Source of the DNA: Actinomycetota bacterium
GTDB lineage: Bacteria > Actinomycetota > Actinomycetes > Actinomycetales > Microbacteriaceae
Direction of reading: 5' to 3'
NCBI GenBank assembly: GCA_020161315.1
Contig: JAIUOH010000037.1
Span: 1-32,080 of the forward strand
Length of the DNA stretch: 32,080 nt
The notes beneath the pieces were generated by a model. It was given only the letters and a program-made list of their open reading frames with translations. It had not been told where the DNA came from and searched no databases. Below are positions 399 to 14,309 of this stretch, piece after piece. The number at the start of each line of letters is the position of its first letter. Position 1 is the stretch's first letter. The translations under genes and the position numbers were made by a program.

Positions 399-2222
399 TC
401 AATCGATCGACCAAACGTTGTCAACCGCCAAATCAGCTAGAACCTCTGCCCTTGAAGTGATATCGCTTGCAAGAACTTCGTGCTTCGCGCTGTCACCGAT
501 CCACTTTGAAAGTTCAGAGTCTATCCAAGGGACGAAAGATCTCAACCCTGGGCGCTTCGCAGCGAGGTCGCCGTCGCGCAATTCACCGTTCGCTTCGCTC
601 GTCAAAAGTGCCAGGTTTCCAATCGAGTATTCTGGACTTTCAATCTCGCGAGAGGACTTACTCTGAGGTCTAATGTGCTCGATGGTCCAAGCGGTCAGAT
701 CCTGCCCTAATGTCATCGAATTGTGATGTTGCGCGAAGCGCAGAAGTACATACGCGACAAATTGCTTTCGCGAACGGCGCTTCTGTGCGTTGGTCAGCCG
801 CGCCTTGGGCGCATAGAACAGCTGTGCGAACGCTTTCTTAGTTGCCGTGGGGCTTGGAAGGCTCCCCTTGAGTCGCAGTCGGAAAGCATCTACGGTCGCC
901 TGCACGGCTGCCCTTGAGGCCGCCGCCTCAAGTTCGACTGCAAATCTGTTGTATCGACCGCGGGTACCCCCGGTGGAACCACTGTTTGTGAGGGCAGTGA
1001 ACTGAAAGTGGAAGTTCTCAATAGCGCGACAGGCAGCGATTAGGTCCTTCTTGCGCATCAAGGCCGTCTTTTCAAATTTTCGGACGACCGCAAGTAATGC
1101 GGAGTTCGCGACTGAGACGTTGAACAACGCAAGGGCCCGAATTGTTTCTGCAACTTCGGGAACCGCGAGAGCGCTCTTTGACCCCAAGAGCGACTTGTCA
1201 ATTACCAGGCCAACATCATCAAGGAACTGATACGCAATCGAATCGAACTCAAGTTCCTCAAGATACCTCAGGTGAGCTTCCGTCGACCCGGTTACAAGCT
1301 CAAGAATCTTCTTGTACAACTCTGCTTCGGTAGTCGCAGGACGACGTGAGTTCCATGACTGCCAAATAAACTGATCGACACTGGTCATTGACCCGGCCTC
1401 AGTCTGAACGCGATCAACCAATCGTTCCCAGCGTTCGGAAATGGTCTCTCTGTCTTCCACTTCCGTTGCACCACCTCGTACGAGTAAGTTTTTCACGAGG
1501 TCGGCGAGCCGGAGATCTGCACCTCGCGTATTGAGGGTCTCAAAAACAAGAAAGCCATCTTCTTCGGAGGTCAGTTCGACTTGAATGAGGCGCGCTTTAA
1601 GGACGTTATTGCGAAGTGATTTGAGTGTCTCAACAGTCTCGGACAAAGATTTGCCTTCGACCACTTTCTGGATCATTGCTTCGAAGTACTCGCGAGCGAC
1701 GCCGATCTGACGAGCGCTCCCGTTCCACTTTCTGCCTGACGGGATCGCATGCGGGTTTTGCACAACCTCCTTAAAATTTGGTTCATTCCGATCGATAACG
1801 GGATATTTCTTACCATCGTCGTCTTCAGCCACGAGGTACCGTTGTGTGTTGTTCACCTGTGTCTTGGCTTGCGATCTAAGTTCGTCCAGATCAGCACCTC
1901 CGCCGCTCTCACTCGCGAGCAGAAAGGCATCTCTGATGACCGACAGAATGATTGCACTAGTCGTCAGGCGTTGTTGGCCGTCGATAATCGAGTATGAGTT
2001 ATTAAACAGTTCTCGGGATTCACTCTCCCAGGTGACTGTCGAACCGAAAAAGAAATCACCCTGGGCCAAAACCACGTCACTCCAGTAGTCATCCAACTCG
2101 TCAATATCCCAGCTATAAGGTCGTTGGAAGTTGGGAACCACATAAAGACACGAGCGGAAGCAATCCTGGATTGTACGCGTCGTTGACTTGATTGGGATGA
2201 GATCCGAGGTCACTGAGGACAC
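399..2222 (-). CDS. Single-chain DUF262-DUF1524 (GmrSD/BrxU-like) nuclease
   Basis: A 607-residue protein with an N-terminal DUF262 domain: QRPYSWD at 33-39 and IIDGQQRLTT at 79-88, the nucleotide-binding/hydrolysis signature of GmrS. At the C-terminus is a DUF1524 HNH-like nuclease module: EHIRPQ at 515-520, then IGNLALL from 534 and a following Asn. Proteins of this architecture and length (GmrSD, BrxU) are type IV restriction enzymes that cut phage DNA with modified bases; the substrate here is unknown. The start is GTG at 2222, supported by AAAAGGAG (2229-2236) six bases upstream. It lies 145 nt downstream of hsdR on the same strand and could be read through or have its own promoter. Its base composition is far lower than the neighbours' (27/60 G+C at 1621-1680), which suggests separate acquisition. 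It would complement the type I system by attacking DNA that escapes it through modification (inference). Confidence 0.9.
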   Translation of the reverse strand: MSSVTSDLIPIKSTTRTIQDCFRSCLYVVPNFQRPYSWDIDELDDYWSDVVLAQGDFFFGSTVTWESESRELFNNSYSIIDGQQRLTTSAIILSVIRDAFLLASESGGGADLDELRSQAKTQVNNTQRYLVAEDDDGKKYPVIDRNEPNFKEVVQNPHAIPSGRKWNGSARQIGVAREYFEAMIQKVVEGKSLSETVETLKSLRNNVLKARLIQVELTSEEDGFLVFETLNTRGADLRLADLVKNLLVRGGATEVEDRETISERWERLVDRVQTEAGSMTSVDQFIWQSWNSRRPATTEAELYKKILELVTGSTEAHLRYLEELEFDSIAYQFLDDVGLVIDKSLLGSKSALAVPEVAETIRALALFNVSVANSALLAVVRKFEKTALMRKKDLIAACRAIENFHFQFTALTNSGSTGGTRGRYNRFAVELEAAASRAAVQATVDAFRLRLKGSLPSPTATKKAFAQLFYAPKARLTNAQKRRSRKQFVAYVLLRFAQHHNSMTLGQDLTAWTIEHIRPQSKSSREIESPEYSIGNLALLTSEANGELRDGDLAAKRPGLRSFVPWIDSELSKWIGDSAKHEVLASDITSRAEVLADLAVDNVWSID

Positions 2223-2367
2223 ACTGTGCTCCTTTTCAAGGGAATCTTTCGATCATGTTTCTTGACTGCTCTTAGAGAGCGAACGGCTGAGGACTTTCTC
2301 CGGCGACCAAGCTCGTTGCATGAATGAGCGAACGCCATCTCGGAGTTCCTTCGTATGGGCAATCAAC

Positions 2368-5304
2368 TCAGTAGTATTCCCGCACATAGCGCAGCGCCTT
2401 CTCGAACACGTCGTTGTCGCGGATCTTGAATTGCACATAGAGCGTCTGTCTTAGTGCCTTGCGCACTTCTTGGTCGCCCGCAATCGTGGACTGCCAACCG
2501 TCGAACCGCACTGCACGCACTACCTCGTCGATGCGATCGACAACGTTGGAGACGATGATCGGCGTCTCATCCCCCTTGAGCGCTTCGAACAGCTCGGTGA
2601 GCGCAGCTTTGCCCTGCTCTTCGCGAGGAATCTCCTGCTCAGCCTTTTCCGCAGCAACAGTGTCCCTCGCGAGCTCGAGCAGCTCACGCAGAAACTCGAG
2701 GCTGGACTGCTGAATATCCGCGTACTTCTCCCGCAATGTGTTCAGACGCTGTCCGAGCTCAATGAACACCGGGTTGCCCAAGTGCCGGGCGATACGTGCG
2801 GTGATCTGTTTCTCGATCTGCTCCGTCGACACGTCGGTGCGACGCCCAGTCATGAGGTCTTCGATAGTTTGGGCGTCGAGCACGATCGTCTCTTCGCCCT
2901 GCGGGATCTCGACGTGGATGTTCTCGTTGATCAGCTCGATCGTCTTCGCACCGAGCGCGTGCCACACGAGGCGGCCGGTGATGTCGGCGGGCCGCACCGA
3001 CTCGTACACTTCGGTGAGCCAGCGGTAGTCGTCGCGATAGGCCCGAAGCATCGGGTCTGGGCTGAGCGCCTCCCACAGCTGCGACACCACGCTGTACGCG
3101 AGGCCGAACGCGTCTTTGGTGGCGTCGTCGGCGATTGCCGCCTGCGCTTGAATCAACCCCTCATATCCACCGACCGAGCGATCGACGCCAGGGAAGAAGG
3201 CGAGCGCCGTTGCCATCGCCGGCGCCAGCTCTGCCTTCAGCTCTTCAATGTTTGTGATCACCTGCTGCACGGCGGCTTCGTCGAACGCGAGCGACTTGGC
3301 GACGTCGTCGAAGATACCGAGGTAGTCAACGATCAGCCCGTGCGTCTTGCGCGGCGGGTACACACGGTTTGTGCGGGTAATCGCCTGCAGCAGCGTGTGC
3401 TCTTTCAGCGGCTTATCGAGGTACTGCGTCTGCAGGATCGGGGCATCGAACCCGGTGAGCAGCTTCGCCGTCACGATGATGATCTTCAACGGGTCGGCAG
3501 GGTCGTTGAACCTGGCGAGCACCTGTTCGAGCTCGTCAGCGCCCGGCGTCCATTCCGCCCAGCTGGAAGTATCGGTGCGCGACTTCGACATCACAATCGT
3601 GGATGCCTCGGGCGGCAGCATCGTGTCGAGCGCTTCCTTGTACGCAACACAGGATGCCTTGTCGTAAGCGACCAACTGCGCTTTGAACCCTTCGGGCTCC
3701 ACCTTCGTGGTGAAGTGCTCGACGACATCGGCGGCGATCTGGCGGATGCGCTCCGGTGCCTTGATGAGCACCTCGATGGACGCCGCCTTCTTCGATAGCG
3801 TGGTCTTCTCGCCCTCGCTCAGGCCCCGCTCGGCGGCGAGCTCTTCGAACGCGGTGTCGATCTTCTCCTGATCGAGGTGGATCGCGCTCAATCTTGGCTC
3901 GAAATGCAAAGGCAAGGTCGCCCCATCACGGATGGAGTCCTGGAACGAGTACCGCGACAGGTATCCGCCCTCGTCTTCGGGTGACCCGAACCACATGAAG
4001 GTGTTGCGGTCACGCTTGTTGATCGGGGTGCCAGTCAGTCCGAACAGGAACGCGTTCGGCAGCGCCTCACGCATCCGCTGCCCGTAGTCGCCCTCTTGCG
4101 AGCGGTGTGCCTCGTCGACCATGGCGATGATGTTCTGCCGGTCGTTGAGTACCCCGGATGCCTCACCGAACTTGTGAATCGTCGTGATGATGATCCGCCG
4201 CGCCCCCTGACTCAGCATCGTTTGCAGCTCGAGGCGGGAGCTTGCGGAAACGAGCCCAGGAACATCGGTTGCGTTGAAGGTCCCGGTGATCTGAGTGTCG
4301 AGGTCAATCCGGTCGACCACGATGAGGATCGTCGGGTTCGTCAACTCTGCCATCGCACGCAGCTTCAGCGCGGTGAACACCATTAGCAACGACTTGCCCG
4401 ACCCCTGGAAATGCCAGATGAGGCCCTGCTTGATGCGCCCGTGCAGCACGCGCTCAACGATCAGGTTCGTCGCCTGGAACTGTTGGAACCGGGCGATGAT
4501 CTTGATCTTGCGGTGCTTCGCATCGGTCGCGTACACGGTGAAGAACCGGAGGAAGTCGAGGATGGATGCCGGCTTCAGCACGCCGTTCACGGCGTCCTTG
4601 ACGACCTCGAGCCCGACCTTCGTCGGGGCGTCGGGATCAGTCTCTTCCTCACGCCACGGCCCCCACTTCTCGACGGGCATCCCGACCGTGCCATATCGGA
4701 AGTCTTTGCCCTCGGTAGCGAACGAAAACACGTTCGGCACGAAGAACTGCGGCACGCTGGCTTCGTAGTCGTCGTGGATCTGCGCCGCACCGTCAATCCA
4801 CGAGGACGCCGCCCGGATCGGCGTCTTCGCCTCACCGACCACCAGCGGGAACCCGTTGCACCACAGCACGAGATCGAACCGCTTGCCCAACCGACCAATC
4901 TGGAACGATACCTCAGTGGAGACGACCCACTGATTCGATGAATCGTCTTCGGGGTGGTCGAAGTCGATCAGCCGCACCGTGGTGTGTTCGCCGTTCGGGC
5001 CGAACGGCATCGACTTCGCACCCGTCAGCCACGCCATGAACTCCTCGTTCGCGACCACTGGGTGCGGGCTGTTGCGTGCCGAGATCAGAATCGCCCGCAA
5101 CGTGTAGATGACCTCGTCGGCCTTCGCCGGTTCTGCCGCGATCTCGGGGTTCAGCCGGACCAGAGCATCTTTGACCAGACCCTCCAACAGCACCTCATCC
5201 GGACGGCGAGGAAGCTCGGTGCCCGGGATGAACTGCACGTCAGCGGATGCCACCAGATCGCGTACGAAGTCACGCACCGTGTTTGCCTCATTGAACTGCG
5301 CCAT
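2368..5304 (-). CDS. hsdR: Type I restriction endonuclease subunit R
   Basis: A 978-residue motor/nuclease subunit, normal length for HsdR. The N-terminal PD-(D/E)xK nuclease is visible as D144 ... E158-A-K160 (GEAK). The SF2 translocase follows: Walker A QGSGKS at about 300-305, DEAH at 397-400, TGTP at 424-427, and a C-terminal RecA lobe with KLLTGFDAP and the QAITRTNR arginine-finger region. The C-terminal helical part, which usually docks on the methyltransferase, is present. With HsdM2S it translocates unmethylated DNA and cuts it at a distance. The ATG start at 5304 overlaps the hsdS stop by one base (TGATG), so translation is coupled. No frameshift or lost catalytic residue was seen; the gene appears functional. 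Confidence 0.97.
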   Translation of the reverse strand: MAQFNEANTVRDFVRDLVASADVQFIPGTELPRRPDEVLLEGLVKDALVRLNPEIAAEPAKADEVIYTLRAILISARNSPHPVVANEEFMAWLTGAKSMPFGPNGEHTTVRLIDFDHPEDDSSNQWVVSTEVSFQIGRLGKRFDLVLWCNGFPLVVGEAKTPIRAASSWIDGAAQIHDDYEASVPQFFVPNVFSFATEGKDFRYGTVGMPVEKWGPWREEETDPDAPTKVGLEVVKDAVNGVLKPASILDFLRFFTVYATDAKHRKIKIIARFQQFQATNLIVERVLHGRIKQGLIWHFQGSGKSLLMVFTALKLRAMAELTNPTILIVVDRIDLDTQITGTFNATDVPGLVSASSRLELQTMLSQGARRIIITTIHKFGEASGVLNDRQNIIAMVDEAHRSQEGDYGQRMREALPNAFLFGLTGTPINKRDRNTFMWFGSPEDEGGYLSRYSFQDSIRDGATLPLHFEPRLSAIHLDQEKIDTAFEELAAERGLSEGEKTTLSKKAASIEVLIKAPERIRQIAADVVEHFTTKVEPEGFKAQLVAYDKASCVAYKEALDTMLPPEASTIVMSKSRTDTSSWAEWTPGADELEQVLARFNDPADPLKIIIVTAKLLTGFDAPILQTQYLDKPLKEHTLLQAITRTNRVYPPRKTHGLIVDYLGIFDDVAKSLAFDEAAVQQVITNIEELKAELAPAMATALAFFPGVDRSVGGYEGLIQAQAAIADDATKDAFGLAYSVVSQLWEALSPDPMLRAYRDDYRWLTEVYESVRPADITGRLVWHALGAKTIELINENIHVEIPQGEETIVLDAQTIEDLMTGRRTDVSTEQIEKQITARIARHLGNPVFIELGQRLNTLREKYADIQQSSLEFLRELLELARDTVAAEKAEQEIPREEQGKAALTELFEALKGDETPIIVSNVVDRIDEVVRAVRFDGWQSTIAGDQEVRKALRQTLYVQFKIRDNDVFEKALRYVREYY

Positions 5305-6479
5305 CAGTTACCTCCGAAGATCTCGGTCAGCACAGACTTCCGCACGACCGAAGTGGCATCCATCTCACTCCGCAGCACATCGAGGACCCCTTCGAGCTTG
5401 TCCAGATGATCGACGATCGTCTGCCGTTCGTTCGGGTCCGCTGACCACGGAATGAGTTGCTCATTGAGCCAGCGAACAGCGAGGTTCCCGAGGCCAACGG
5501 TGCCCGAAGCGCCCTCACTCATGCGCGCTTGCATTCCGTCCTCGTTGAGAACACGGAACAGGAACTTCCTGTCCGCCGGATTCTTCACCTGCATCAGGAA
5601 CTGGAACGCGGAGACCGCGTAACCGTGTGCTTCCTCAGGAGGGATGTAGACGTTGCCAATCCGTTGCCGGTTGCCGTTCGTGCGGATCAGAATCAGGCTG
5701 CTGTCGTCAATGCGACCAACGCTGTCAGGTAAACCGCTGACGTAACCGAGGCCATCTAAGTCAATGGTTCCATCGGGCTTCGTATTCGGGATACCCAAGA
5801 CTGGAACAGATCCCGGGATGCTCGTCTCATGGACGTCGGATGCTGCGAACGATGGCCCTGACCGGGTAGTTGCGATGTCTCCGAGTTTTGACCTGGTCGT
5901 CAGTGAGGCCAGCCGAGCTGCAGTTGCATGGGCCAGCGACGTGCGAGAAGCGGAGATCGTACCGCTGAGCGCGAGCTTGTGGCGCTCGATGGCCCAGAGG
6001 AGGTCGGCGATGCGCTTCTGCTCGTCGAGGGGTGGGAGGTCAAACTCGAAATTGGCCAGGTCGCGCCAGTTGGTCCGAGGCGAGAGAGAGCCCGCGGAAG
6101 TGTCGAGAGCATGATCGAAGAAGCGGTCAGACTGCACAAGGAAGGGCAGGAACTCACCCATCAGGTGCGACTCGTCGGCCTCGAAGGTGTAAACATCTCC
6201 GGAGCAGATGGCGTCGAACTCGGCGAAAGCGACCTTGCGTTGGTAGGCGCGGCGCTTGCCGAACAGCGTTTGGCCAGGCTGCACCCGGCGAGTGAACGTC
6301 GTCCCGTCCGCCGCTGACCCCCAGCGCTCGATCTTGAGTTCGCCCGGGTCCATGTGTTCCATCGCGATGACGCGATCGATGCCAGCGGCATCCGCATCCT
6401 TCACGGTCTGGTTCACGTTGCGAACGACATCACCGAAGGTGACGCGCTTCCACGAGGACTTATCGAGAGCGAGGCTCAT
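5304..6479 (-). CDS. hsdS: Type I RM specificity subunit S
   Basis: A 391-residue HsdS with the usual two target-recognition domains. TRD1 spans about residues 8-150 and ends in PPLDEQKRIADLL (149-161), the classic start of the first conserved coiled-coil spacer. TRD2 runs from about 195 to 350 and is followed by a second helix region (NERQTIVDHLDKLEGVLDVL, about 352-371). It determines the bipartite sequence methylated or cut by the complex; the target cannot be read from sequence. The start ATG (6479) overlaps the upstream hsdM stop by four bases (ATGA) and its own stop overlaps hsdR by one. TRDs in such genes recombine often, so specificity is probably strain-specific. The second HsdS-like domain of the operon is fused to the methyltransferase at 9462-11426. 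Confidence 0.95.
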   Translation of the reverse strand: MSLALDKSSWKRVTFGDVVRNVNQTVKDADAAGIDRVIAMEHMDPGELKIERWGSAADGTTFTRRVQPGQTLFGKRRAYQRKVAFAEFDAICSGDVYTFEADESHLMGEFLPFLVQSDRFFDHALDTSAGSLSPRTNWRDLANFEFDLPPLDEQKRIADLLWAIERHKLALSGTISASRTSLAHATAARLASLTTRSKLGDIATTRSGPSFAASDVHETSIPGSVPVLGIPNTKPDGTIDLDGLGYVSGLPDSVGRIDDSSLILIRTNGNRQRIGNVYIPPEEAHGYAVSAFQFLMQVKNPADRKFLFRVLNEDGMQARMSEGASGTVGLGNLAVRWLNEQLIPWSADPNERQTIVDHLDKLEGVLDVLRSEMDATSVVRKSVLTEIFGGN

Positions 6480-7969
6480 GCGGTCACCTCCCCTCGCAGC
6501 AGCGACAGCACGTTGGCGATCGCGTCGTCCGAGGCATCCGCCGCTTCACGCCAGCTCGTCAGTGCGTCGGCAACATCGACTTCCGCGCCTGCACCTGCTG
6601 CCTTCGCGCCGGACACATACAGCGGGATGGCCAGGCTGTAGCCCTTGTCCGCGATCTGGTCGAGCGTGGCGACCGACGCGAACCCGTCGACCTGGACGAA
6701 CCCGCGGTACGCGTCGAGGATCTTCGCCTGATGCGTCTCGCGCAGGAACGACTGCGCTTGCTCGCGGGCTACTTCGTCGACGGCGTTGATGAACTGCACC
6801 TTGCCCCGCCGTCCGGCGGGCTTGGTGGTGCGGAGGGTGATGACGACGGCCTCCATCGGCGAGTTGTAGAACAGCCCCGCCCCCAGGCCGAGCACGCACT
6901 CAAGCAGGTCTGACTTCACCAGTGCTTCACGGAGCGCAGCCTCTTCTCGGCGGAACAGCACCCCGTGTGGAAAGAGGATCGCTGCGCGCCCGGTCTTGGG
7001 GTCGAGGCTCTTGGCGATGTGCTGGAAGAACGCGTAGTCGGCGCGGCCCTGCGGGGGAACACCCCAAATGTTGCGTCCGTAGGGGTCAGTGGCGAAGGCA
7101 TCCCTATTCCAGGCTTTGATCGAGTACGGCGGGTTGGCGAGCACCACGTCGAACGTCTGCAACGCGCCTTTGCGGTCGAGGAACGCGGGTTTGGTGAGGG
7201 TGTCGCCGTGGGCGATCTGGCCGTCGGTGATGCCGTGCAGGAACAGGTTCATGCGGGCAATGGCGGAGGTTCCGTAGTTGAGTTCCTGCCCGTAGAGCTT
7301 CAGGCCTCGCCACTCCTTGCCCTGGCGTTTCACCTCAGCGGCGGTGGAGATAAGCATGCCGCCCGTGCCGCACGTGGGGTCGTATACCGACTCGCCCGGC
7401 TGGGGTTCGAGCATGAGGGTCATCAGGTGCACGAGGGTGCGGTTCGTGTAGAACTCCTGCGCGGTGTGGCCCGAGTCATCGGCGAACTTCTTGATCAGGT
7501 ACTCGTAGCCATTGCCGAGTTCGTCTTCGGGCAGGTTTGCGATCGACAGTGTCTGGGTAGAGAAATGCTCGATGAGGTCGGCGAGCGTGGAGTCGGGCAG
7601 CAGGTTCTTGTTGCCCCAGTCACCATCGCCGAACACGCCCGGGAGGGTGTCGGGGTTGGCGGACTCGATGGCGCGCATCGCTTTCAGTACCGTGGCGCCG
7701 ATGTTCTCGGTGACCGCGCGGACGTCGCGCCAGTGGCATCCGTCCGGGATCGCGAAGCGGTGATTCTCTGGAAGGTCGGCGAGTTCGTCGTCGCCGTAGG
7801 TGTCGAGTGCTGCGGCGTGTTCTTCGTCGTAGACGTCGGAGATGCGCTTGAGGAACACCAGCGGGAAGATGTACTGCTTGTAGTCGCCGGCGTCGATGAG
7901 GCCGCGCAACACGACCGCGGCGCCCCACAGGTAGTTCTCCAGTTCGCGCTGGGTGATCCGGGTGCTCAT
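6476..7969 (-). CDS. hsdM: Type I RM methyltransferase subunit M (second copy)
   Basis: A 497-residue HsdM with the N-terminal helical domain (residues 1-150) and an N6-adenine methyltransferase domain carrying motif I DPTCGTGGM (197-205) and motif IV NPPY (279-282). The start is the ATG at 7969, which overlaps the stop of the preceding hsdM by four bases (ATGA); the frame stays open further upstream, but only antisense to codon use of that gene. It is clearly paralogous to that neighbour, but the usual G-x-F/Y-Y-T-P element just before motif I reads AQEFYTNR (170-177), whereas the neighbour keeps AGEYYTPR. I recall such HsdMs in other actinobacteria, so it is probably active. Having two distinct HsdM genes beside one hsdS is the oddity: they may form a heterodimer on HsdS, or serve HsdS and the TRD-bearing fusion respectively. 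Confidence 0.95.
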   Translation of the reverse strand: MSTRITQRELENYLWGAAVVLRGLIDAGDYKQYIFPLVFLKRISDVYDEEHAAALDTYGDDELADLPENHRFAIPDGCHWRDVRAVTENIGATVLKAMRAIESANPDTLPGVFGDGDWGNKNLLPDSTLADLIEHFSTQTLSIANLPEDELGNGYEYLIKKFADDSGHTAQEFYTNRTLVHLMTLMLEPQPGESVYDPTCGTGGMLISTAAEVKRQGKEWRGLKLYGQELNYGTSAIARMNLFLHGITDGQIAHGDTLTKPAFLDRKGALQTFDVVLANPPYSIKAWNRDAFATDPYGRNIWGVPPQGRADYAFFQHIAKSLDPKTGRAAILFPHGVLFRREEAALREALVKSDLLECVLGLGAGLFYNSPMEAVVITLRTTKPAGRRGKVQFINAVDEVAREQAQSFLRETHQAKILDAYRGFVQVDGFASVATLDQIADKGYSLAIPLYVSGAKAAGAGAEVDVADALTSWREAADASDDAIANVLSLLRGEVTA

Positions 7970-9465
7970 GCGCTCAGGCCCCACTTCGACAGTTCGGCTT
8001 CGAGCGCCGCGCGGGTCTCTTGCGACCGGGCGTGTGCGGCTTCGAGGTTGTCGAAGGCTTCGGCGAGCGTGAGTTTCTCGCCGGTGTCGGCGGGTGCAAC
8101 ATAGAGCGGGATGTTGAGGTTGAACGCGTTCGACTCGATCTCGGCGAGGTCTGCGACATGGGCGAGTCCGTCGGCGTCGGCGAACGCCTCGTATGCGTCG
8201 AAGATCGCATCGGCGTGCTCGGGTTCGAGGGTGTTCTGGTTGCGGCCCTTCTTCATGTGCTGCTCCGCATTGATGAAAAGCACCCTGCCGCGCCGCTCGG
8301 GGCGCTTCCGCTGACGAAGGATCAACACGCAAGCAGCCAGTCCCGTGCCGTAGAACAGGTTCGGCGCGAGCCCGATGACCGCTTCGATCTTGTCGGCCTG
8401 GAGGACATGCGTGCGGATGCGTGCCTCGGCGCCCTGCCGGAACAACGCGCCCTGCGGCAGCACGACGGCGACGCGGCCGCTGGTCGGGTCGGCGGAGGTG
8501 AGCATGTGCTGCACCCATGCCCAGTCGGCGTATCCCTTGGGGGGCACTCCGCCGAGCTGATTGCGGCCCCACCGGTCGCTCGCCCACTCCACCTCGCCCC
8601 AGGCTTTGAGCGAGAACGGTGGGTTCGCGACCACGCAGTCGAATCGGGCGAGGTGGTTGCCGGTGTAGAACGCGGGGTTGCGGAGGGTGTCTTCGCGGAC
8701 GATCTTGAAGTCCTCGACCCCGTGCAGCAGCAGGTTCATCCGTGCGATCGCCGAGGTCGCGAGCACCCTCTCCTGCCCATAGAGCTTGCCCCACAGTGTC
8801 TTCGGGTTGCCCGCGGCATCCTTCACATGCTCGATCACCTCGATGAGCATGCCGCCGGTGCCGCACGCGGGGTCGTACACACTCTCACCCTCTTGCGGGT
8901 CGAGGATGTTGATCAGCAGCCGCACGACCGGGCGCGGAGTGTAATACTCGCCGGCCTTCTTGTTGGACTGATCGGCGAACCGTTTGATGAGGTACTCATA
9001 CGCGTTGCCGAAGACGTCCGGCGCGACCGTCGCGTTGCTCAGCGTCTGCGTCGAGAAGTGCTCGATCAAATCGGCGAGCTTGCGGTCAGGCAGCTTGTCC
9101 TTGTTCGTCCAGTTCGCGTTGCCGAAGATGCCGTACAGCGTCTCGGGATTCGCCTTCTCGATCTCACGGAACGCGGTATGCAGCGCCGTGCCGATGTTTT
9201 CAGTCTTCGCCCGCACATCCAACCACAGGTTGCCCTCGGGGATCGCGAATCGGTGGTTCTCCGCGAACGAAGCAAACTCGTGGTCGCCGCCCGACTCGTC
9301 GAGGGCCTGCGCGTACTCCTCGACGTAGACGTCGCTGATCCGCTTGAAGAACATCAGCGGAAAAATGTACGCCTTGAAATCGGCCTGATCGATGCTGCCG
9401 CGCAGCAGGTCTGCGGCGCCAGCAAGGTAGTGTTCGAGCTCGCTTAGCGTGAGTCGTTCCGTCAT
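7966..9465 (-). CDS. hsdM: Type I RM methyltransferase subunit M (first copy)
   Basis: A 499-residue HsdM. It has the N-terminal HsdM domain, AGEYYTPR at 171-178, motif I DPACGTGGM at 198-206 and motif IV NPPF at 281-284, all intact for S-adenosylmethionine binding and adenine N6 methylation. The start ATG (9465) overlaps the stop of the HTH-methyltransferase fusion by four bases, and its stop overlaps the second hsdM by four. Alignment by eye with the second copy runs end to end (for example SDVYxEE, ADLIEHFSTQTLS, SAIARMN), so they are paralogues, but with many substitutions. This is either an old duplication or two systems merged into one operon. Confidence 0.95.
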   Translation of the reverse strand: MTERLTLSELEHYLAGAADLLRGSIDQADFKAYIFPLMFFKRISDVYVEEYAQALDESGGDHEFASFAENHRFAIPEGNLWLDVRAKTENIGTALHTAFREIEKANPETLYGIFGNANWTNKDKLPDRKLADLIEHFSTQTLSNATVAPDVFGNAYEYLIKRFADQSNKKAGEYYTPRPVVRLLINILDPQEGESVYDPACGTGGMLIEVIEHVKDAAGNPKTLWGKLYGQERVLATSAIARMNLLLHGVEDFKIVREDTLRNPAFYTGNHLARFDCVVANPPFSLKAWGEVEWASDRWGRNQLGGVPPKGYADWAWVQHMLTSADPTSGRVAVVLPQGALFRQGAEARIRTHVLQADKIEAVIGLAPNLFYGTGLAACVLILRQRKRPERRGRVLFINAEQHMKKGRNQNTLEPEHADAIFDAYEAFADADGLAHVADLAEIESNAFNLNIPLYVAPADTGEKLTLAEAFDNLEAAHARSQETRAALEAELSKWGLSA

Positions 9466-11426
9466 TGAGTTCTTTCGTCGAGGTGATCGTTGAGGTGGGC
9501 GCCAAAGCGGACGGCGTTGAGAACTGCTGTCGCCAGGCTATCTGCAGCCTCGGACGCTTGCTTCGCAAGCTGCTTCGCCTTGCGCGCGCCACTGATGGTG
9601 GCGTGGATGGCCTGTTGAACATCGATTGGAGGAATAGGAACCTCGATGTCTGGCAATGGGATCCGCTGAAGGGCGGTCCCGACGGCAAAACGAAGGTTCC
9701 ATTCACCAGCGAGCACATCTGCCAAGTAGAAGGGATCAAGGTTCGCGCGATCGACGATCCTGATGCGAAAAATGCTATGCCCCACGGGAAACCTGCCACC
9801 CGACTCATCGACGACTGCTCGGACGCCCTGCACCGTCGTTACGAGAATGTCTTCGGGCTGCGTGAGCAGTTTCGAGTTTTCTGCAGGTGAAAGATCCTGG
9901 ACCTGTGGGAGAACTCCACTTCGCACATCGCTGATTGACACATGCCGGTCTTCGAACTGGGGGTCGCCATCGGTCCTTGGCGGTCCGGCTATGGCGATCT
10001 CGATCGCCCCTGCCTCGACAAGTTTGCCGACTGTGAGTAGCGGCTGTGGCACCGTGACACTGGGTGGGACGATGCTTTCGACAGATTTCGGAAGTGCGGT
10101 TGCCGCATGATGCAGTTGGGTTCTTGACTGCTCAAAGTCCTCGACAATCTGTGCTTCGTCAATCCCTTCGGCCAGTATCCATCGGGCCGGGCTCAGGTCC
10201 GCGTTGCCGCTAGCCAACTCATCGCGTGAAACTCGCGCGTGAGGGACTTCTGCGAGTAGCCGCGATTCGGTGAGCCAACCAGCGACATCTTCCTCTGGCT
10301 TTCTGACCGAAGTTCCGTCGATAAGCAAGACGTCGTCATGGGTAGCAGAGGTCGGTTCTGTGAGCACCCACAGAGCTAGCGGAATCGGCGTCTGCGGGAG
10401 CATCCTGCCTGGTAATGCTATGACAGCGCGCACATATCCACTGAGCAGAAGATTACGCCGAATCTCGGCCTCGGCCCCACCGCGTGACAATAGCGCCGGC
10501 GAAGTGAGAATATAACCGACACCTCCGGGGGCAAGGTGCGCACACACGTGCTGGATCCAGAACGCATCGCCGCTGGCGCGCGAGGGGATGCCGAAGCGAA
10601 GCCTCGGATCCAGCATTGTGGTCTGGGTGTCGAGACGCAATCCGAACGGTGGCTCCGCGATGATCACATCTGCACGCAAGTCGGGGTCCGGGTCGTGGTC
10701 AAGCACGTCAGCGACACGGAGCTGCAGTTCGACGCCGCGCAACAATGCGCGACCTCTGGCAATTTCGACGGCAGTCGAGTTAATCTCATGGCCGACTATG
10801 TGGTTTGGGGTCCCCCCCAAGTCAAGCGACTGCAGAAGGGCTACGCCGACTCCGCACGCAGGGTCATACAGAGTCCCGCCATCAAGACCTGCGGCTAGCG
10901 ATGCCAGCAGTGCGCTAGTACGCGATCCGACGAATCCGATATCGCCAGCAGATTTCCCGTGAGCTCGAGACGTTCGTTCCAGCAGACCGTCGATGGCCCC
11001 TGCAAGTTCGTCGCGTGGGACAGCTTTGAGTGCGTGCCTCAACTCGCTGACATCCTGTGGCCGAAAATCATGCCTGGTAGATGGCGGCCGTCCGTTAAGA
11101 TGTTCGACCGCAGTCTGGACGAAGAGCTCGCCGAGCATCTGGCTCGATCCCTGCCCCCGAAATAGATTTGCCACGCCCCACAGTCGAGACTCCCATGCGC
11201 GATCGTCGGGACGATCAGACGTGTCGGACTTTCGCTTTTCCGGGTGAGCTGCAAGCCAGCGGTCGATGTCCGAAGCAGCGAACAGTGGCTTGCTGGCGGT
11301 CCCTCCAGTGGGCTTGGGGAAGTCGGAGTTGCGCTTTCGCCAGTTGCTCACCGCGGCGCGAGAGACACCAGCAAGGTCTGCAATGTCGCTGGGTGCGAGG
11401 AGCCCCTCATTCGGCGGATTGGTCAT
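9462..11426 (-). CDS. HTH + degenerate N6-methyltransferase + HsdS-like TRD fusion
   Basis: A 654-residue multidomain protein. Residues about 8-60 form a helix-turn-helix (IADLAGVSRAAVSNWRKR, with the downstream DIDRWLAAH segment typical of phage/MerR-like HTHs). Residues about 80-360 are an HsdM-type N6-methyltransferase fold with motif I DPACGVG (188-194), but motif IV reads EPPF (258-261) instead of N/DPPF. Residues about 465-645 look like a single HsdS half: a TRD followed by IPPIDVQQAIHATISGARKAKQLAKQA, the usual post-TRD helix. One chain could thus bind its own promoter, bind SAM and read a DNA target. The Glu in motif IV makes catalysis doubtful. Start ATG 11426 overlaps the NYN gene stop; its stop overlaps hsdM. 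I do not know a characterised protein with this layout. It may be a regulator or methylation sensor, or an alternative specificity/methylase arm. Confidence 0.85.
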   Translation of the reverse strand: MTNPPNEGLLAPSDIADLAGVSRAAVSNWRKRNSDFPKPTGGTASKPLFAASDIDRWLAAHPEKRKSDTSDRPDDRAWESRLWGVANLFRGQGSSQMLGELFVQTAVEHLNGRPPSTRHDFRPQDVSELRHALKAVPRDELAGAIDGLLERTSRAHGKSAGDIGFVGSRTSALLASLAAGLDGGTLYDPACGVGVALLQSLDLGGTPNHIVGHEINSTAVEIARGRALLRGVELQLRVADVLDHDPDPDLRADVIIAEPPFGLRLDTQTTMLDPRLRFGIPSRASGDAFWIQHVCAHLAPGGVGYILTSPALLSRGGAEAEIRRNLLLSGYVRAVIALPGRMLPQTPIPLALWVLTEPTSATHDDVLLIDGTSVRKPEEDVAGWLTESRLLAEVPHARVSRDELASGNADLSPARWILAEGIDEAQIVEDFEQSRTQLHHAATALPKSVESIVPPSVTVPQPLLTVGKLVEAGAIEIAIAGPPRTDGDPQFEDRHVSISDVRSGVLPQVQDLSPAENSKLLTQPEDILVTTVQGVRAVVDESGGRFPVGHSIFRIRIVDRANLDPFYLADVLAGEWNLRFAVGTALQRIPLPDIEVPIPPIDVQQAIHATISGARKAKQLAKQASEAADSLATAVLNAVRFGAHLNDHLDERTQ

Positions 11427-11905
11427 GCGGCCTCCAGAATGCCGTAGTTGTCATACTCGAGTTCAATTACTTGGGAAGCGGCCATACGCAAACGGCGAGA
11501 CAATGCGCGCGGGCGGGACGCTACCGTCACGTTGACTCCCTGAGCGCCGAGCGATGCTACTGCGTCAGTGAAGATGGCGTCCCCTGAGATCAGGAGTACA
11601 TCGGTGAATCGATCAGCGATGCGTTCCGTCTCGAGGATTGCAAGCAGCTCGAGGTCTGCGCCATCAACCCCGGGACGAAAAACGAAGCGACGGTTGCCGC
11701 TCCACGCAAAGCCAGCGATTCTGGCGCTTTCCCGGCCGCAAGCAAGAACAATGTGGTCGTTGTCAAAATCAAGGGAAGTCGCGTCAGCAAGAGCATCCCG
11801 AACATCACGCACCTGTTGAGCCACCTGGATTCCACCTCCCGACACATTCTCAATATCAATTAGGACAAGACGGCGACGAATCGCTACCTTAGTTGTGAAC
11901 ATCAT
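11423..11905 (-). CDS. NYN-domain (PIN-like) putative nuclease
   Basis: About 160 residues, almost entirely a NYN domain (PIN-fold, LabA-like). LVLIDIENV (13-21) gives D17 and N20, GADLELLAI (82-90) gives D84, and LLISGDAIFTDA (104-115) gives D109 and D114; this is the acidic set expected for a metal-dependent RNase. It heads the restriction operon: its stop overlaps the next ATG by four bases. The start is uncertain. I take ATG 11905, just before the fold; an in-frame ATG at 11956 would add 17 residues, and neither has a clear ribosome site. The frame stays open further upstream to 12175, but that part overlaps the promoter and operator. NYN proteins process RNA or act as toxins; a role in protecting or signalling within this restriction operon is inference only. 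Confidence 0.8.
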   Translation of the reverse strand: MMFTTKVAIRRRLVLIDIENVSGGGIQVAQQVRDVRDALADATSLDFDNDHIVLACGRESARIAGFAWSGNRRFVFRPGVDGADLELLAILETERIADRFTDVLLISGDAIFTDAVASLGAQGVNVTVASRPRALSRRLRMAASQVIELEYDNYGILEAA

Positions 11906-11920
11906 ATCATCCAAATCTGT

Positions 11921-12020
11921 TGTGAATCCGATCCCCATCGGATGGATTGATCTCATCGTGGCACAGAATTCGAATGAGCGCAAGTGTGAATCTGATTCAC
12001 ATAGTAAATGCGTGTGAATC
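11921..12020. promoter_or_regulatory. Operator: 17-bp perfect palindrome plus two half-sites
   Basis: TGTGAATC-T-GATTCACA (11985-12001) is a perfect palindrome with 8-bp arms, covering the predicted transcription start. Extra TGTGAATC copies lie at 12013-12020 (between -35 and -10) and at 11921-11928 (before the NYN start), with a weaker TGTGAAC at 11894-11900. Placement over and beside the promoter is the classic geometry for repression. The likely ligand is the HTH domain of the fusion protein, giving autoregulation of the operon (inference). Confidence 0.7.
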
Positions 12021-12029
12021 AATAGACAA
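12001..12029 (-). promoter_or_regulatory. Promoter of the NYN/restriction operon
   Basis: On the minus strand TTGTCT (12024-12029) and TACTAT (12001-12006) are separated by exactly 17 bases; each matches the sigma-70-type consensus at four of six positions. The predicted transcript starts near 11994, in front of the NYN gene. It is the only convincing promoter before the six overlapping genes. The surroundings are AT-rich compared with the rest of the window. Confidence 0.6.
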
Positions 12030-12134: not shown

Positions 12135-12200
12135 GGCCCACGCCTCTGGCAGATCGCGGTATAGCGGGCCGTCAACCGTGATCTGCCAGACGCGTGGGCC
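12135..12200. repeat. 21-bp inverted repeat (one mismatch), 24-nt loop
   Basis: Positions 12135-12155 and 12180-12200 are reverse complements at 20 of 21 positions, the single mismatch being the tenth base; the core is TCTGGCAGATC / GATCTGCCAGA. It lies upstream of the defence operon promoter and downstream of the integrase. A 28-codon frame (ATG 12096, AGGAGG upstream) runs through the first arm and stops inside the second, but shows no recognisable product. It may be a strong hairpin, a recombination or replication site, or the remnant ends of an insertion. Confidence 0.65.
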
Positions 12201-12463
12201 CGTGGGAGGGAGCGAGGGCGTCGTGTTCTAGCTGCCTCCTAGGCGCTTCAGTGCGTGACTGCGAGGTCAGATCAATCGCAGTGGATTGGCAGCTTTGGGA
12301 ACGGGTGCGCATCTACTTGCTAGAAAGAATGTCGCTGAGCGCGAAGGGGTGAGTGATGTGCAAGCCGAGTCTTTCAATCGCCGTCGTGCGTCACGGGCCC
12401 AAAGCGGAGTAGCCCATGACGCGCGCGAACACACCGCCGATGGTCATACACGCCGTCCCGTAC

Positions 12464-12627: not shown

Positions 12628-13809
12628 CTACGCATTCTTGCCGAAGGCGCGTTCGAGCAGCTCGGCGGTCGCGGGGTTCACCATCTCGTTGCGGCGAATG
12701 TAGTGCTGCACCGTGATCGCCGGGTCCGTGTGTCCGAGTAGCTCCGCGGCAAGGTCGACGCCAGCCTCATTGCTGATTGCGGTGGCAACCGTGCGACGAA
12801 ACATGTGCGGGGTGACGCCCTCGATGCCCGCGAGGTCGAGCACGTGCCGAAGCTGCCTGCGCACGTTGTTCGTCGTCAGCGGGCCACCGTCACGATTACA
12901 GAACAGCAGCGCATCAAGCGAGGCATCATCACGGCGAGCAAGCCTGAGCCGCACCACCTCCGCAGCGAACGCGGGGAGCGCGACGGCGCGTCTGGACTTC
13001 GCAGTCTTGGGATGATCCTGCCGCTGGGTCGGTTCGCCGCGGTGCGCGACGATGGTGCCACTAATGCGAATCGACGGCGGGGCGCTCACGATGTCGATAT
13101 CGCGGCGCCGGATCGCGAGCACCTCACCGATGCGGGCCGACGTGCCAAGCATGACCTCGACGATCGCGCCGAGCTGCCCGTCCGGTTTCGGCCCGGAGGG
13201 TGAGAGCCCGGTCTCCCAGAACGCGATCGCGGTGCGGATGGCGTTCACCTCGGCGGGGGTGAGCGCGTTCGGTGTCGTCGGGGGTTTCCGGAGCCGTGAG
13301 ACGTGATCCATCGGGTTGCGCGGCAGCACCTCGTGCCGCACGGCGAGCCCGAGCGCGAGGCGCAATGCGACCCGTGCCTGTTTGGCGCGGTTGTAGCTTT
13401 GCTTCGCGAGCTGTTTCAAGAAGTGGTCGCAGCGGGCCACGCCGATCTCGCGCAGCGTGAGGTCTTTGAACGCGGGAAGTACGAGCGTGCGCATGTTGCG
13501 TTCGTACAGCTGACGAGTGGTGGTCGAGAGCCGGTCTTCAAGATCGAGATCTTCAAGCCAGTACGCCACCAGGTCGGGGAACGGACTGTCGGCAGTCAGC
13601 TCGATGCCTGCGGGCTGGTAGAGCGTGCGCTCGGCAAGCTTCGCTTTCAACCGTTGCTCGGCGGCGCGCTTCGTGTCGCCGGTGGCTTGCACGAGCCGGG
13701 ATTTTCCATCCCAGTCGCGATATCTCGCGCGGGCGGTCACGCGACCGGTCGATGCGGTCTGGAATCCGATCGTGCCGAAGGTGCCGATGGTGAGGCGTGG
13801 GCGGCTCAT
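12628..13809 (-). CDS. int: Tyrosine-type integrase of the island
   Basis: A 393-residue phage-type integrase. It has an N-terminal arm-binding region, a SAM-like core-binding domain (about 75-175) and a catalytic domain with R226 (ARIGE), K271, H335-x-x-R338 (HMFR), H360 (LLGH) and the nucleophile Y370 (VQHYIR); the whole R-K-H-R-H-Y set is present, so it should be active. The ATG at 13809 is chosen because GGGAGGTG lies just upstream and the domain starts there; the upstream extension overlaps the excisionase gene. It catalyses integration and excision, here presumably at the 3' end of the tRNA-Pro gene 420 bp away. Four bases separate it from the upstream HTH gene, so they form an operon. 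Confidence 0.93.
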   Translation of the reverse strand: MSRPRLTIGTFGTIGFQTASTGRVTARARYRDWDGKSRLVQATGDTKRAAEQRLKAKLAERTLYQPAGIELTADSPFPDLVAYWLEDLDLEDRLSTTTRQLYERNMRTLVLPAFKDLTLREIGVARCDHFLKQLAKQSYNRAKQARVALRLALGLAVRHEVLPRNPMDHVSRLRKPPTTPNALTPAEVNAIRTAIAFWETGLSPSGPKPDGQLGAIVEVMLGTSARIGEVLAIRRRDIDIVSAPPSIRISGTIVAHRGEPTQRQDHPKTAKSRRAVALPAFAAEVVRLRLARRDDASLDALLFCNRDGGPLTTNNVRRQLRHVLDLAGIEGVTPHMFRRTVATAISNEAGVDLAAELLGHTDPAITVQHYIRRNEMVNPATAELLERAFGKNA

Positions 13810-13813
13810 CGTG

Positions 13814-14053
13814 TCACCTCCCGTCGAACGGGGGCGTCTGGGCGCCGTCGCGTTGCTGCTCGATCCAGACACGTACGTCGGAGACGGCGAACTTCAGGTG
13901 CTTGCCGAAGCGGTACGCGCGCGGGCCGAGGCCGCGGGTGCGCCAGTCGTAGACCGTCGAGACCGGCACACCCAGGTAGGCGGCCAGCTCGCCGACGTCG
14001 AGCAGGGGCTCCAGGCCCCAAGGGTTGTCTGCGGTGCGGTGTTCGGTGCTCAT
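13814..14053 (-). CDS. Excisionase-like HTH DNA-binding protein
   Basis: About 79 residues from the ATG at 14053, mostly a MerR/excisionase-type winged helix: LLDVGELAAYLGVPVSTVYDWRTRGLGPRAYRFGKHLKFAVSDV, read here in pieces as LLDVGELAAYLGVPVSTVY then the RFGKHLKF wing. Its place directly between the tRNA and the integrase, four bases before the integrase start, is typical of a recombination directionality factor. The start is uncertain: the frame remains open to a TTG at 14155 and no site has a clear ribosome signal. It may also repress its own transcription. Confidence 0.8.
   Translation of the reverse strand: MSTEHRTADNPWGLEPLLDVGELAAYLGVPVSTVYDWRTRGLGPRAYRFGKHLKFAVSDVRVWIEQQRDGAQTPPFDGR

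Positions 14054-14232: not shown

Positions 14233-14309
<77 letters not shown>

What the first reader, a model, noticed from the sequence alone, without database searches (positions are those of the whole stretch)
399..12029. Six-gene translationally coupled operon joining NYN, HTH-MTase-TRD, two HsdM, HsdS and HsdR
All five junctions overlap (ATGA at 11423, 9462, 7966 and 6476; TGATG at 5304), and one operator-controlled promoter leads them. A standard type I system needs only M, S and R. Here a NYN nuclease and an HTH/methyltransferase/TRD fusion come first and are locked into the same translation chain, and a second HsdM is present. Such strict coupling implies fixed stoichiometry and a common function. 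I infer an extended type I system, perhaps with RNA cleavage or sensing added; I know of no characterised one with this layout.
Basis: partly seen in the sequence, partly recalled or inferred. Interest (0 to 1): 0.8.

Follow-up and report, generated by a model that had tools for sequence, protein, structure and literature searches.

The report
Swappable two-gene header on defence operons
A pair of adjoining genes, one for a probable RNA-cutting enzyme and one for a DNA-binding protein built like a DNA methylase that lacks a key residue, sits at the front of several different bacterial anti-virus gene clusters and looks like a portable control-and-alarm module rather than a part of the restriction enzyme itself.

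Summary
The six genes and five overlaps are real, but they are two things joined. hsdM1-hsdM2-hsdS-hsdR is a type I system of the known two-M (PacII) design. In front lies a two-gene cassette: a NYN nuclease and FUS, an HTH-methyltransferase-TRD fusion whose motif IV is EPPF. The cassette is a separate, movable unit. It is present in 10 of 58 M1+M2+R loci with enough upstream sequence and absent from a sister island with the same integrase. NYN and FUS co-diverge, largely independently of the restriction core. The cassette also heads canonical type I operons (9 loci) and DISARM (2 loci); of 18 co-directional cassettes found without hsd bait, 13 precede type I genes. A dyad beside the -35 box occurs in 11 of 14 cassette promoters and 0 of 62 cassette-less M1 upstream regions. 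I infer that FUS autoregulates as a pseudo-methyltransferase and restrains NYN, an RNase effector, rather as EcoprrI holds PrrC. Boldest reading not excluded: FUS is a decoy sensing phage anti-restriction proteins. My ten paper searches found no description of the cassette.

The parts
11423..11938 (-). NYN-domain nuclease gene (172 codons incl. stop; alternative starts 11905, 11902)
9462..11426 (-). FUS: HTH - HsdM-like methyltransferase domain (motif IV EPPF) - single TRD - long C-terminal helix, 654 aa
   Evidence: Pfam N6_Mtase, PADLOC MTase_I, weak Specificity_I and weak mad1, AF2 pLDDT 83.9, top Foldseek match 7eew then PacII M subunits
10644..10655 (-). FUS residues 258-261 EPPF in place of the NPPF/Y of HsdM motif IV
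   Evidence: alignment of 14: EPP 12 of 14, DPP 2 of 14, NPP 0 of 14
11985..12001 (.). perfect 17-bp dyad (probable operator) beside the -35-like TTGCGC (11978-11983); extra half-sites 12013-12020 and 11921-11928
   Evidence: dyad+TTG in 11 of 14 cassette promoters vs 0 of 62 cassette-less M1 upstream regions vs 47 of 4200 random windows
7966..9465 (-). hsdM1 (NPPF; M1-type subunit of the two-M type I design)
   Evidence: best PDB match PacII M1 7vru_A 526.9 bits against 455.2 for PacII M2
6476..7969 (-). hsdM2 (NPPY; M2-type subunit)
   Evidence: best PDB match PacII M2 7vru_B 563.4 bits against 401.6 for PacII M1
5304..6479 (-). hsdS specificity subunit
   Evidence: Pfam Methylase_S, PADLOC Specificity_I 312 bits
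2368..5304 (-). hsdR restriction/translocase subunit
   Evidence: NCBIfam TIGR00348 hsdR 499.5 bits over cut-off; Pfam SWI2_SNF2, HSDR_N
399..2222 (-). GmrSD/DUF262-like gene behind hsdR; neighbour, not a conserved part
   Evidence: Pfam GmrSD_N, GmrSD_C, PADLOC HEC-06/Orf5; 145-bp gap
12628..13872 (-). tyrosine integrase, between the operon and tRNA-Pro (14233-14309)
   Evidence: Pfam Phage_integrase, ARAGORN; inside a 90% nt identical stretch shared with L057

Best explanation
The locus is a type I restriction-modification operon of the two-M (PacII-like) design headed by a portable two-gene cassette, NYN-FUS, that is not part of the restriction enzyme. SHOWN by comparison: NYN and FUS are a unit (adjoining, co-diverging), optional for the core, and placed before two-M type I, canonical type I and DISARM operons; FUS keeps the methyltransferase fold and motif I but lacks the catalytic Asn; a dyad accompanies the cassette promoter. 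INFERRED: FUS, a probable dimer, binds the dyad with its N-terminal HTH and represses the operon that carries it; its methyltransferase/TRD half binds DNA (and probably SAM) without methylating, as a sensor of DNA or methylation state. NYN is a metal-dependent RNase kept inactive by its co-translated partner FUS. When FUS is drawn away (phage DNA, loss of methylation or an anti-restriction protein) the operon is derepressed and NYN attacks RNA to stop growth, a second line behind restriction, working like PrrC with EcoprrI.
For: Unit: NYN/FUS overlap possible in 14 of 14 M1M2SR-linked cassettes; NYN-FUS distance correlation 0.83 in 10 loci, against FUS-M1 0.33, FUS-M2 0.00, FUS-R 0.53, FUS-S -0.13 (M1-R 0.79). 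Optional: 10 of 58 M1+M2+R loci carry it; L057 has the same integrase and core without it. Portable: canonical type I, DISARM; AU tests on subsets of rows reject one FUS clade for the M1M2SR cassettes (17 rows, p 2.4e-4) and reject the L064+L069 FUS pairing on the core tree (18 rows, p 1.7e-81). Pseudo-methyltransferase: NPP in 0 of 28 co-directional cassettes; EPP 22, IPP 3, DPP 2, none 1. Operator: 11 of 14 vs 0 of 62. NYN fold and conserved acidic residues. Precedents: M.SsoII, a methyltransferase with an N-terminal HTH that represses its own promoter (passages of PMC3978073); PrrC silenced by EcoprrI and released by Stp (passages of PMC2610378).
Against: No experiment shows repression, RNase activity or toxicity. 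32 of the 52 examined NYN homologues have no FUS beside them (in one, L215, the contig ends about 350 bp behind NYN), so NYN is not obligatorily held by FUS. In 6 of 6 divergent pairs FUS has NPPF and may be active; DPP in L063/L066 could be active too. The dyad rule was set after seeing some promoters and fails in 3 of 14 (L033, L063, L066). On the core tree the cassette is clustered (7 changes, shuffled mean 10.4, 6 of 500 shuffles as low), so part of its spread is inheritance. The relatives found are mostly actinobacterial and related, so counts are not independent events; the AU groups were named after seeing the trees. The window FUS has no Pfam HTH match at E 1e-3.
Confidence: 0.58

Rival explanations
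1. Controller only: FUS is a methyltransferase-derived transcription regulator (like M.SsoII or a C protein) and NYN is a partner that trims the operon mRNA to set its level; there is no toxic alarm.
For: Dyad found at cassette promoters and not at cassette-less ones; HTH-methyltransferase regulators of R-M operons are known (PMC3978073 passages); RptR shows type I operons can have dedicated repressors (PMC12255303 abstract and passages).
Against: Does not explain why a nuclease gene goes with FUS and co-diverges with it, nor their wide divergence against a nearly fixed core.
Confidence: 0.2
2. NYN-FUS is a small modification-restriction pair of its own: FUS still methylates its own site (EPPF or DPPF tolerated) and NYN cuts nucleic acid lacking that mark.
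For: Motif I DPACG kept in 12 of 14; NPPF in the 6 divergent pairs; weak PADLOC REase_II hit of NYN, E 1.6e-5.
Against: EPP or IPP in 25 of 28 co-directional cassettes and no motif I by pattern in L164, L200 and L201; best fold matches of NYN are MARF1 NYN domains.
Confidence: 0.12
3. One reading: an extended type I enzyme in which NYN and FUS are fixed-stoichiometry subunits.
For: Five overlaps in the window; FUS shares the HsdM/HsdS folds.
Against: M1+M2+R without the cassette in 48 of 58 loci; FUS/hsdM1 overlap lost in 5 of 14; cassette also before DISARM; FUS TRD distance does not track HsdS distance (r -0.17, 10 loci).
Confidence: 0.06
4. Hitch-hiking: the pair has an unrelated function and only shares defence islands with hsd genes.
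For: Some pairs stand without a recognised defence operon (L157-L161, L201, L208, L226); many NYN homologues are solitary.
Against: 13 of 18 co-directional cassettes found without hsd bait lie directly before type I genes and 2 before DISARM, same strand.
Confidence: 0.04

Closest known systems
Non-canonical m6A/m4C type I R-M (PacII M1M2S; PMC9613975, passages read)
   Same: M1 (NPPF) and M2 (NPPY) as separate subunits with one HsdS and an HsdR; best PDB matches in the right order
   Different: The passages read mention no NYN or HTH-methyltransferase header; window M1 has AGEY and M2 AQEF where the paper describes AGEF and AAEF, so m6A/m4C chemistry is inferred
M.SsoII / M.Ecl18kI-type methyltransferases with an N-terminal HTH region that regulate their own R-M operon (PMC3978073, passages read)
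   Same: regulatory N-terminal domain fused to a methyltransferase, quasi-palindromic site at the promoter
   Different: active 5mC enzymes; the passages mention no HsdS-type TRD and no nuclease partner of NYN type
PrrC anticodon nuclease of EcoprrI (PMC2610378, passages read)
   Same: RNase encoded with a type I system as a second defence line
   Different: PrrC has ABC-ATPase motifs (and a HEPN-type nuclease, recalled) and is held by the R-M enzyme; here a NYN fold and a dedicated pseudo-methyltransferase partner
RptR repressor with DarTG2 inside a type I operon (PMC12255303, abstract and passages)
   Same: dedicated operon repressor with palindromic sites, toxin module embedded in a type I locus
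   Different: small transcription regulator, no methyltransferase domain mentioned; toxin unrelated
MADS (mad1, mad2, mad5 models)
   Same: weak similarity of the FUS N terminus to mad1 and of its methyltransferase to mad2; HsdM1, HsdM2 and HsdS touch NCBIfam MADS2/MADS5 far under the cut-offs
   Different: better matches to MTase_I; no NCBIfam MADS2 match at E 1e-3 for FUS
V. vulnificus intact methyltransferase 7eew (title: complex with Ocr)
   Same: best Foldseek match to the FUS model over 608 alignment columns
   Different: domains placed differently (TM-score about 0.4); I did not read its paper; no N-terminal HTH known to me
METTL14 (recalled, no call)
   Same: pseudo-methyltransferase with EPPL instead of the catalytic motif
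   Different: eukaryotic RNA methylation complex

Membership tests
Type I restriction-modification (core) | HsdM, HsdS, HsdR subunits together | tested here: met
   Pfam, PADLOC, NCBIfam
Non-canonical m6A/m4C type I | two different M subunits, M1 with NPPF and M2 with NPPY | tested here: met
   sequences; PacII matches in order
Non-canonical m6A/m4C type I | pocket motifs AGEF (M1) and AAEF (M2) as described in PMC9613975 | tested here: not met
   AGEY in M1, AQEF in M2: one residue off in each. I therefore file the core as a type I system of the two-M design, not firmly as an m6A/m4C enzyme
Non-canonical m6A/m4C type I | m6A on one strand and m4C on the other | not testable with these tools
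   needs methylome
NYN/PIN-like nuclease | NYN fold with conserved acidic residues | tested here: met
NYN/PIN-like nuclease | RNase activity | not testable with these tools
   needs enzyme assay
Active amino-methyltransferase (FUS) | motif IV (D/N/S)PP(Y/F/W) (motif recalled) | tested here: not met
   EPPF in the window; of 28 co-directional cassettes NPP 0, DPP 2
Active amino-methyltransferase (FUS) | SAM motif I | tested here: met
   DPACGVG in the window; DPACG in 12 of 14
Self-regulating R-M controller (M.SsoII/C-protein like) | HTH DNA-binding domain | tested here: inconclusive
   weak mad1 match E 3.8e-5, helices 12-19 and 23-32 in the model; no Pfam HTH at E 1e-3 for the window FUS
Self-regulating R-M controller (M.SsoII/C-protein like) | palindromic operator at its own promoter | tested here: met
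   dyad in the window; rule met in 11 of 14 vs 0 of 62
Self-regulating R-M controller (M.SsoII/C-protein like) | binding and regulation shown | not testable with these tools
   needs EMSA/reporter
Toxin-antitoxin module | adjoining toxin/antitoxin pair with autoregulation and neutralisation | tested here: inconclusive
   overlap and dyad present, but 32 of 52 examined NYN homologues lack FUS and toxicity is untested
MADS | mad1-mad8 gene set (recalled) | tested here: not met
   eight window proteins scanned: only partial mad1/mad2/mad5-type similarity, under NCBIfam cut-offs
DISARM | DrmA, DrmB, DrmC core (recalled) | tested here: not met
   no Drm match shown for the eight window proteins; present behind the cassette in L164/L205

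The most novel reading that the evidence does not exclude
FUS is a decoy-sensor: a dead copy of the methyltransferase clamp that phage anti-restriction DNA mimics (Ocr/ArdA type) are made to bind. When such a protein captures FUS, the operator is freed and the partner NYN RNase is released, turning the phage's counter-defence into the trigger of growth arrest. The cassette is then a general guard that any clamp-type, methylation-based defence operon can acquire. This would explain the loss of catalysis with the fold kept, the wide divergence of FUS against a nearly fixed restriction core, the lack of tracking with HsdS, and the move between type I families and DISARM. Supporting hints only: the best fold match of FUS is an Ocr-bound methyltransferase (7eew), and PacII, the design of this core, is inhibited by Ocr and ArdA (PMC9613975 passages).
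Probability: 0.17. Interest if true: 0.88.

Novelty: new variant of a known kind. Interest (0 to 1): 0.62.

Why it matters
Type I systems and DISARM are usually treated as self-contained. A portable nuclease plus pseudo-methyltransferase header shared by different methylation-based systems would be a common control or alarm layer, and would make 'how do restriction operons respond when phages disarm them' testable in a two-gene module. It also points to a bacterial family of methyltransferase folds without the catalytic Asn (NPP in 0 of 19 further family members looked at) as candidate regulators, and offers a natural plus/minus pair of islands (window and L057) for experiments.

Tried and rejected
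Extended type I enzyme with fixed stoichiometry: rejected as a general property, because M1+M2+R lack the cassette in 48 of 58 loci and the FUS/hsdM1 overlap is lost in 5 of 14.

FUS as an extra specificity subunit that reads the HsdS site: TRD distances do not follow HsdS distances (r -0.17, 10 loci).

MADS membership: only partial similarity. BREX: no BREX model listed for FUS; HsdM2 touches BREX PglX models far under their cut-offs.

Second HsdM as a novelty: explained by the PacII design.

FUS as just another member of the general actinobacterial HTH-methyltransferase family: 141 of 394 class genomes have some match, but of 20 neighbourhoods fetched only those of G266 and G303 had a NYN match; two others (L041, L047) head type I operons without NYN.

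att site: the tRNA-Pro 3' end is not repeated elsewhere in the window (exact matches of 14-25 bases), so island ends stay undefined. Single-locus palindrome scans were weak (60 shuffles each; full 8/8 arms, P about 0.03, in WIN, L033 and L127 only); the comparative test carries the claim. The first genome-contig scan with FUS found nothing. Literature: (10 searches, listings of titles and abstract starts) showed no paper describing NYN with an HTH-methyltransferase before hsd or drm genes; subscription journals and preprints are mostly not in that library, so absence is weak. The original m4C type I paper (10.1093/nar/gkw743) is not held and is known here only through PMC9613975. In PMC10853773 the only NYN mention found is a reference. 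A plain Foldseek listing against the PDB for the NYN model was not obtained; VIA-align over Foldseek's candidates and BFVD were used instead.
Full report
OBSERVATION. The window is contig 26 of a 3.01-Mb assembly. On the - strand lie, in order, an integrase, then NYN, FUS, hsdM1, hsdM2, hsdS, hsdR and a GmrSD-like gene. All five junctions within the six-gene run overlap as reported. A perfect 17-bp dyad (11985-12001) stands next to a -35-like TTG, with two further half-sites.

THE CORE IS OF A KNOWN DESIGN. HsdM1 matches PacII M1 best (526.9 bits; PacII M2 455.2) and HsdM2 matches PacII M2 best (563.4; PacII M1 401.6). M1 has NPPF and M2 NPPY, as described for non-canonical type I enzymes that make m6A on one strand and m4C on the other (passages of PMC9613975). 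Two departures: the pocket motifs are AGEY and AQEF where the paper gives AGEF and AAEF, and window M1 as well as M2 has an arginine at the column of PacII M2 R29. So the two-M design is met and the m6A/m4C chemistry is inferred. A scan of one genome per species with an M1 alignment gave 78 loci, mostly actinobacterial with a few from other bacterial phyla and archaea; 64 have M1, M2 and R together.

THE CASSETTE IS SEPARATE. NYN-FUS precedes M1 in 12 of the 78 loci, plus the window and G303: 14 distinct cases. Of the 58 M1+M2+R loci with more than 3 kb upstream, 10 carry it (the 58 include a few with broken core genes, such as L120). On the M1+M2+R tree its presence needs 7 changes over 63 rows (6 forced by well supported branches; shuffled mean 10.4, 6 of 500 shuffles as low, so it is clustered as well as patchy), or 6 over 57 rows when rows with little upstream sequence are left out. 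L057 (Microbacterium sp. MPKO10) shares a 1.86-kb stretch with the integrase (90% nt) and two long core stretches (80% and 82% nt; part of hsdS does not align) but has no NYN or FUS match. Relative to the window, M1, M2 and R are 76-90% identical in the cassette-bearing loci, while NYN is 32-57% and the FUS methyltransferase domain 30-78%. Within 10 loci, NYN and FUS distances correlate (0.83), M1 and R correlate (0.79), and FUS correlates less with R (0.53), M1 (0.33), M2 (0.00) and S (-0.13); over 30 pairs NYN-FUS gives 0.95, which includes shared descent. L064 and L069 are sisters on the FUS tree but not on the core tree (p-AU 1.7e-81, 18 rows), and a single FUS clade for the M1M2SR cassettes is rejected (p-AU 2.4e-4, 17 rows); the groups were named after seeing the trees. 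A 4-base NYN/FUS overlap is possible in 14 of 14 (ATGA 8, GTGA 3, TTGA 3; starts unproven); FUS and M1 overlap in 9 of 14.

THE CASSETTE IS PORTABLE. I searched with NYN in three genome sets: class, 394 genomes, 24 with a match; genus of G240, 297 genomes, 11 with; order, 396 genomes, 22 with; a few genomes are in more than one set. Of 52 distinct NYN hits whose surroundings I mapped (6 weak hits, three each, were not fetched), 20 have a FUS gene next to them: 14 in the same direction and 6 divergent; 32 have none (in L215 the contig ends about 350 bp behind NYN). A protein search of plasmids with FUS gave 7 records; I opened 5 and all 5 have NYN in front, one being the replicon already found as G410. 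That makes 18 distinct co-directional cassettes found without hsd bait. Behind them: 4 two-M type I (window, G303, G641=L069, and G266, where M1 is cut short and R, S and M2 lie further along the contig); 9 canonical single-HsdM type I (L196-L199, L206, L207, L224, L227, L228; the HsdR of L197 is in shorter frames); 2 DISARM (L164/L205: DrmE by Pfam only, DrmA, DrmB, DrmC and a methylase; L200: DrmA after an 819-aa gene without a PADLOC match); 3 with no recognised system in what I scanned (L201, L208, L226). One divergent pair (L162) is followed by HsdM and HsdS. PADLOC and Pfam support these labels; for L197-L199 the label rests on similarity to L196, and for the plasmids on record annotation.

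FUS LOOKS LIKE A PSEUDO-METHYLTRANSFERASE. In 28 co-directional cassettes (the 14 two-M ones, 9 canonical, 2 DISARM, 3 others) motif IV reads EPP in 22, IPP in 3 (L164, L200, L201), DPP in 2 (L063, L066), no match in 1 (L208); NPP in 0. The 6 divergent pairs have NPPF. In 19 further members of the wider actinobacterial family: HPP 7, SPP 5, DPP 1, VPP 1, none by pattern 5, NPP 0; SPP and DPP can be active motifs in other enzymes (recalled). Motif I is kept in 12 of 14 two-M cassettes. The AF2 model (pLDDT 83.9) has an N-terminal helical domain, a methyltransferase-like middle, a TRD part and a long C-terminal helix; the best PDB match is 7eew, a methyltransferase bound to Ocr, then PacII M subunits (TM-scores to the whole model are only about 0.4). 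That EPPL marks the inactive METTL14 is recalled, not looked up.

OPERATOR. A rule (TGT start, 7-bp arms with at least 5 matches, spacer 1-3, TTG close behind) finds a dyad in 11 of 14 cassette promoters (260 bp each), in 0 of 62 M1 upstream regions without the cassette (330 bp each), and in 47 of 4200 random 260-bp windows from the same cassette loci. Two variants change in both arms together (TGTTTAT...ATAAACA in L064, TGTTAAT...ATTAACG in L069). The rule was written after seeing some of these promoters. L033, L063 and L066 fail it. The four canonical cassettes L196-L199 have a TTCAC-type dyad at the same distance (-132 to -136), none of them significant alone.

MECHANISM AND LIMITS. The comparison shows a co-diverging, adjoining, optional, transferable pair with its own dyad. 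That FUS represses, senses DNA state and restrains NYN, and that NYN arrests growth, are inferences by analogy with M.SsoII and PrrC/EcoprrI. Against them stand the 32 of 52 examined NYN homologues without FUS, the NPPF of the divergent pairs, and the lack of any experiment. The decoy reading is an extension with only structural hints. The result is a new accessory module on known systems; the type I core itself is ordinary for its kind.

Noticed in passing
L111:8033-9898 and L112:5087-6958 (Romboutsia, Faecalimicrobium): A 621-623 aa HsdM-like protein with a TRD-like C terminus by eye precedes the M1M2SR core (in L112 with one gene between), with DIPF/NIPF at motif IV: perhaps an independent pseudo-methyltransferase header in Firmicutes (only the L111 protein was scanned with Pfam).
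   Followed up: partly
L104:8053-9944 (Pacearchaeota MAG): A half-length HsdS and a 438-aa HsdM-like protein with SDPPL at motif IV lie directly before hsdM1: a split arrangement resembling FUS.
   Followed up: partly
L108:17062-17586 and L110:17460-17972 (Bifidobacterium MAGs): A NYN gene of the same subfamily follows hsdR instead of leading the operon; in L108 an AAA_15 ATPase gene precedes hsdM1, and L110 has a similar gene there.
   Followed up: partly
   Followed up: partly
window 12135-12204: A large inverted repeat (about 21-bp arms, GGCCCACGCGTCTGGCAGATC) between integrase and operon; a 33-bp piece (12172-12204) also occurs in L057 in the other orientation.
   Followed up: no
window 399-2222: GmrSD/DUF262-like gene behind hsdR, matching PADLOC HEC-06 and Orf5; a GmrSD_N gene directly precedes hsdM1 in the sister locus L056.
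   Followed up: partly
L163:9482-12997: A NYN gene of the subfamily is followed by a 931-aa NERD-domain protein, with no FUS match.
   Followed up: no
L101:7088-9205: A FUS-like gene (ADPPY at motif IV) stands divergent upstream of the two-M core in Micromonospora veneta, without a NYN match.
   Followed up: no
L034-L051: A large actinobacterial family of HTH-methyltransferase proteins without NPP at motif IV, mostly with no hsd match nearby; L041 and L047 head type I operons without NYN.
   Followed up: partly
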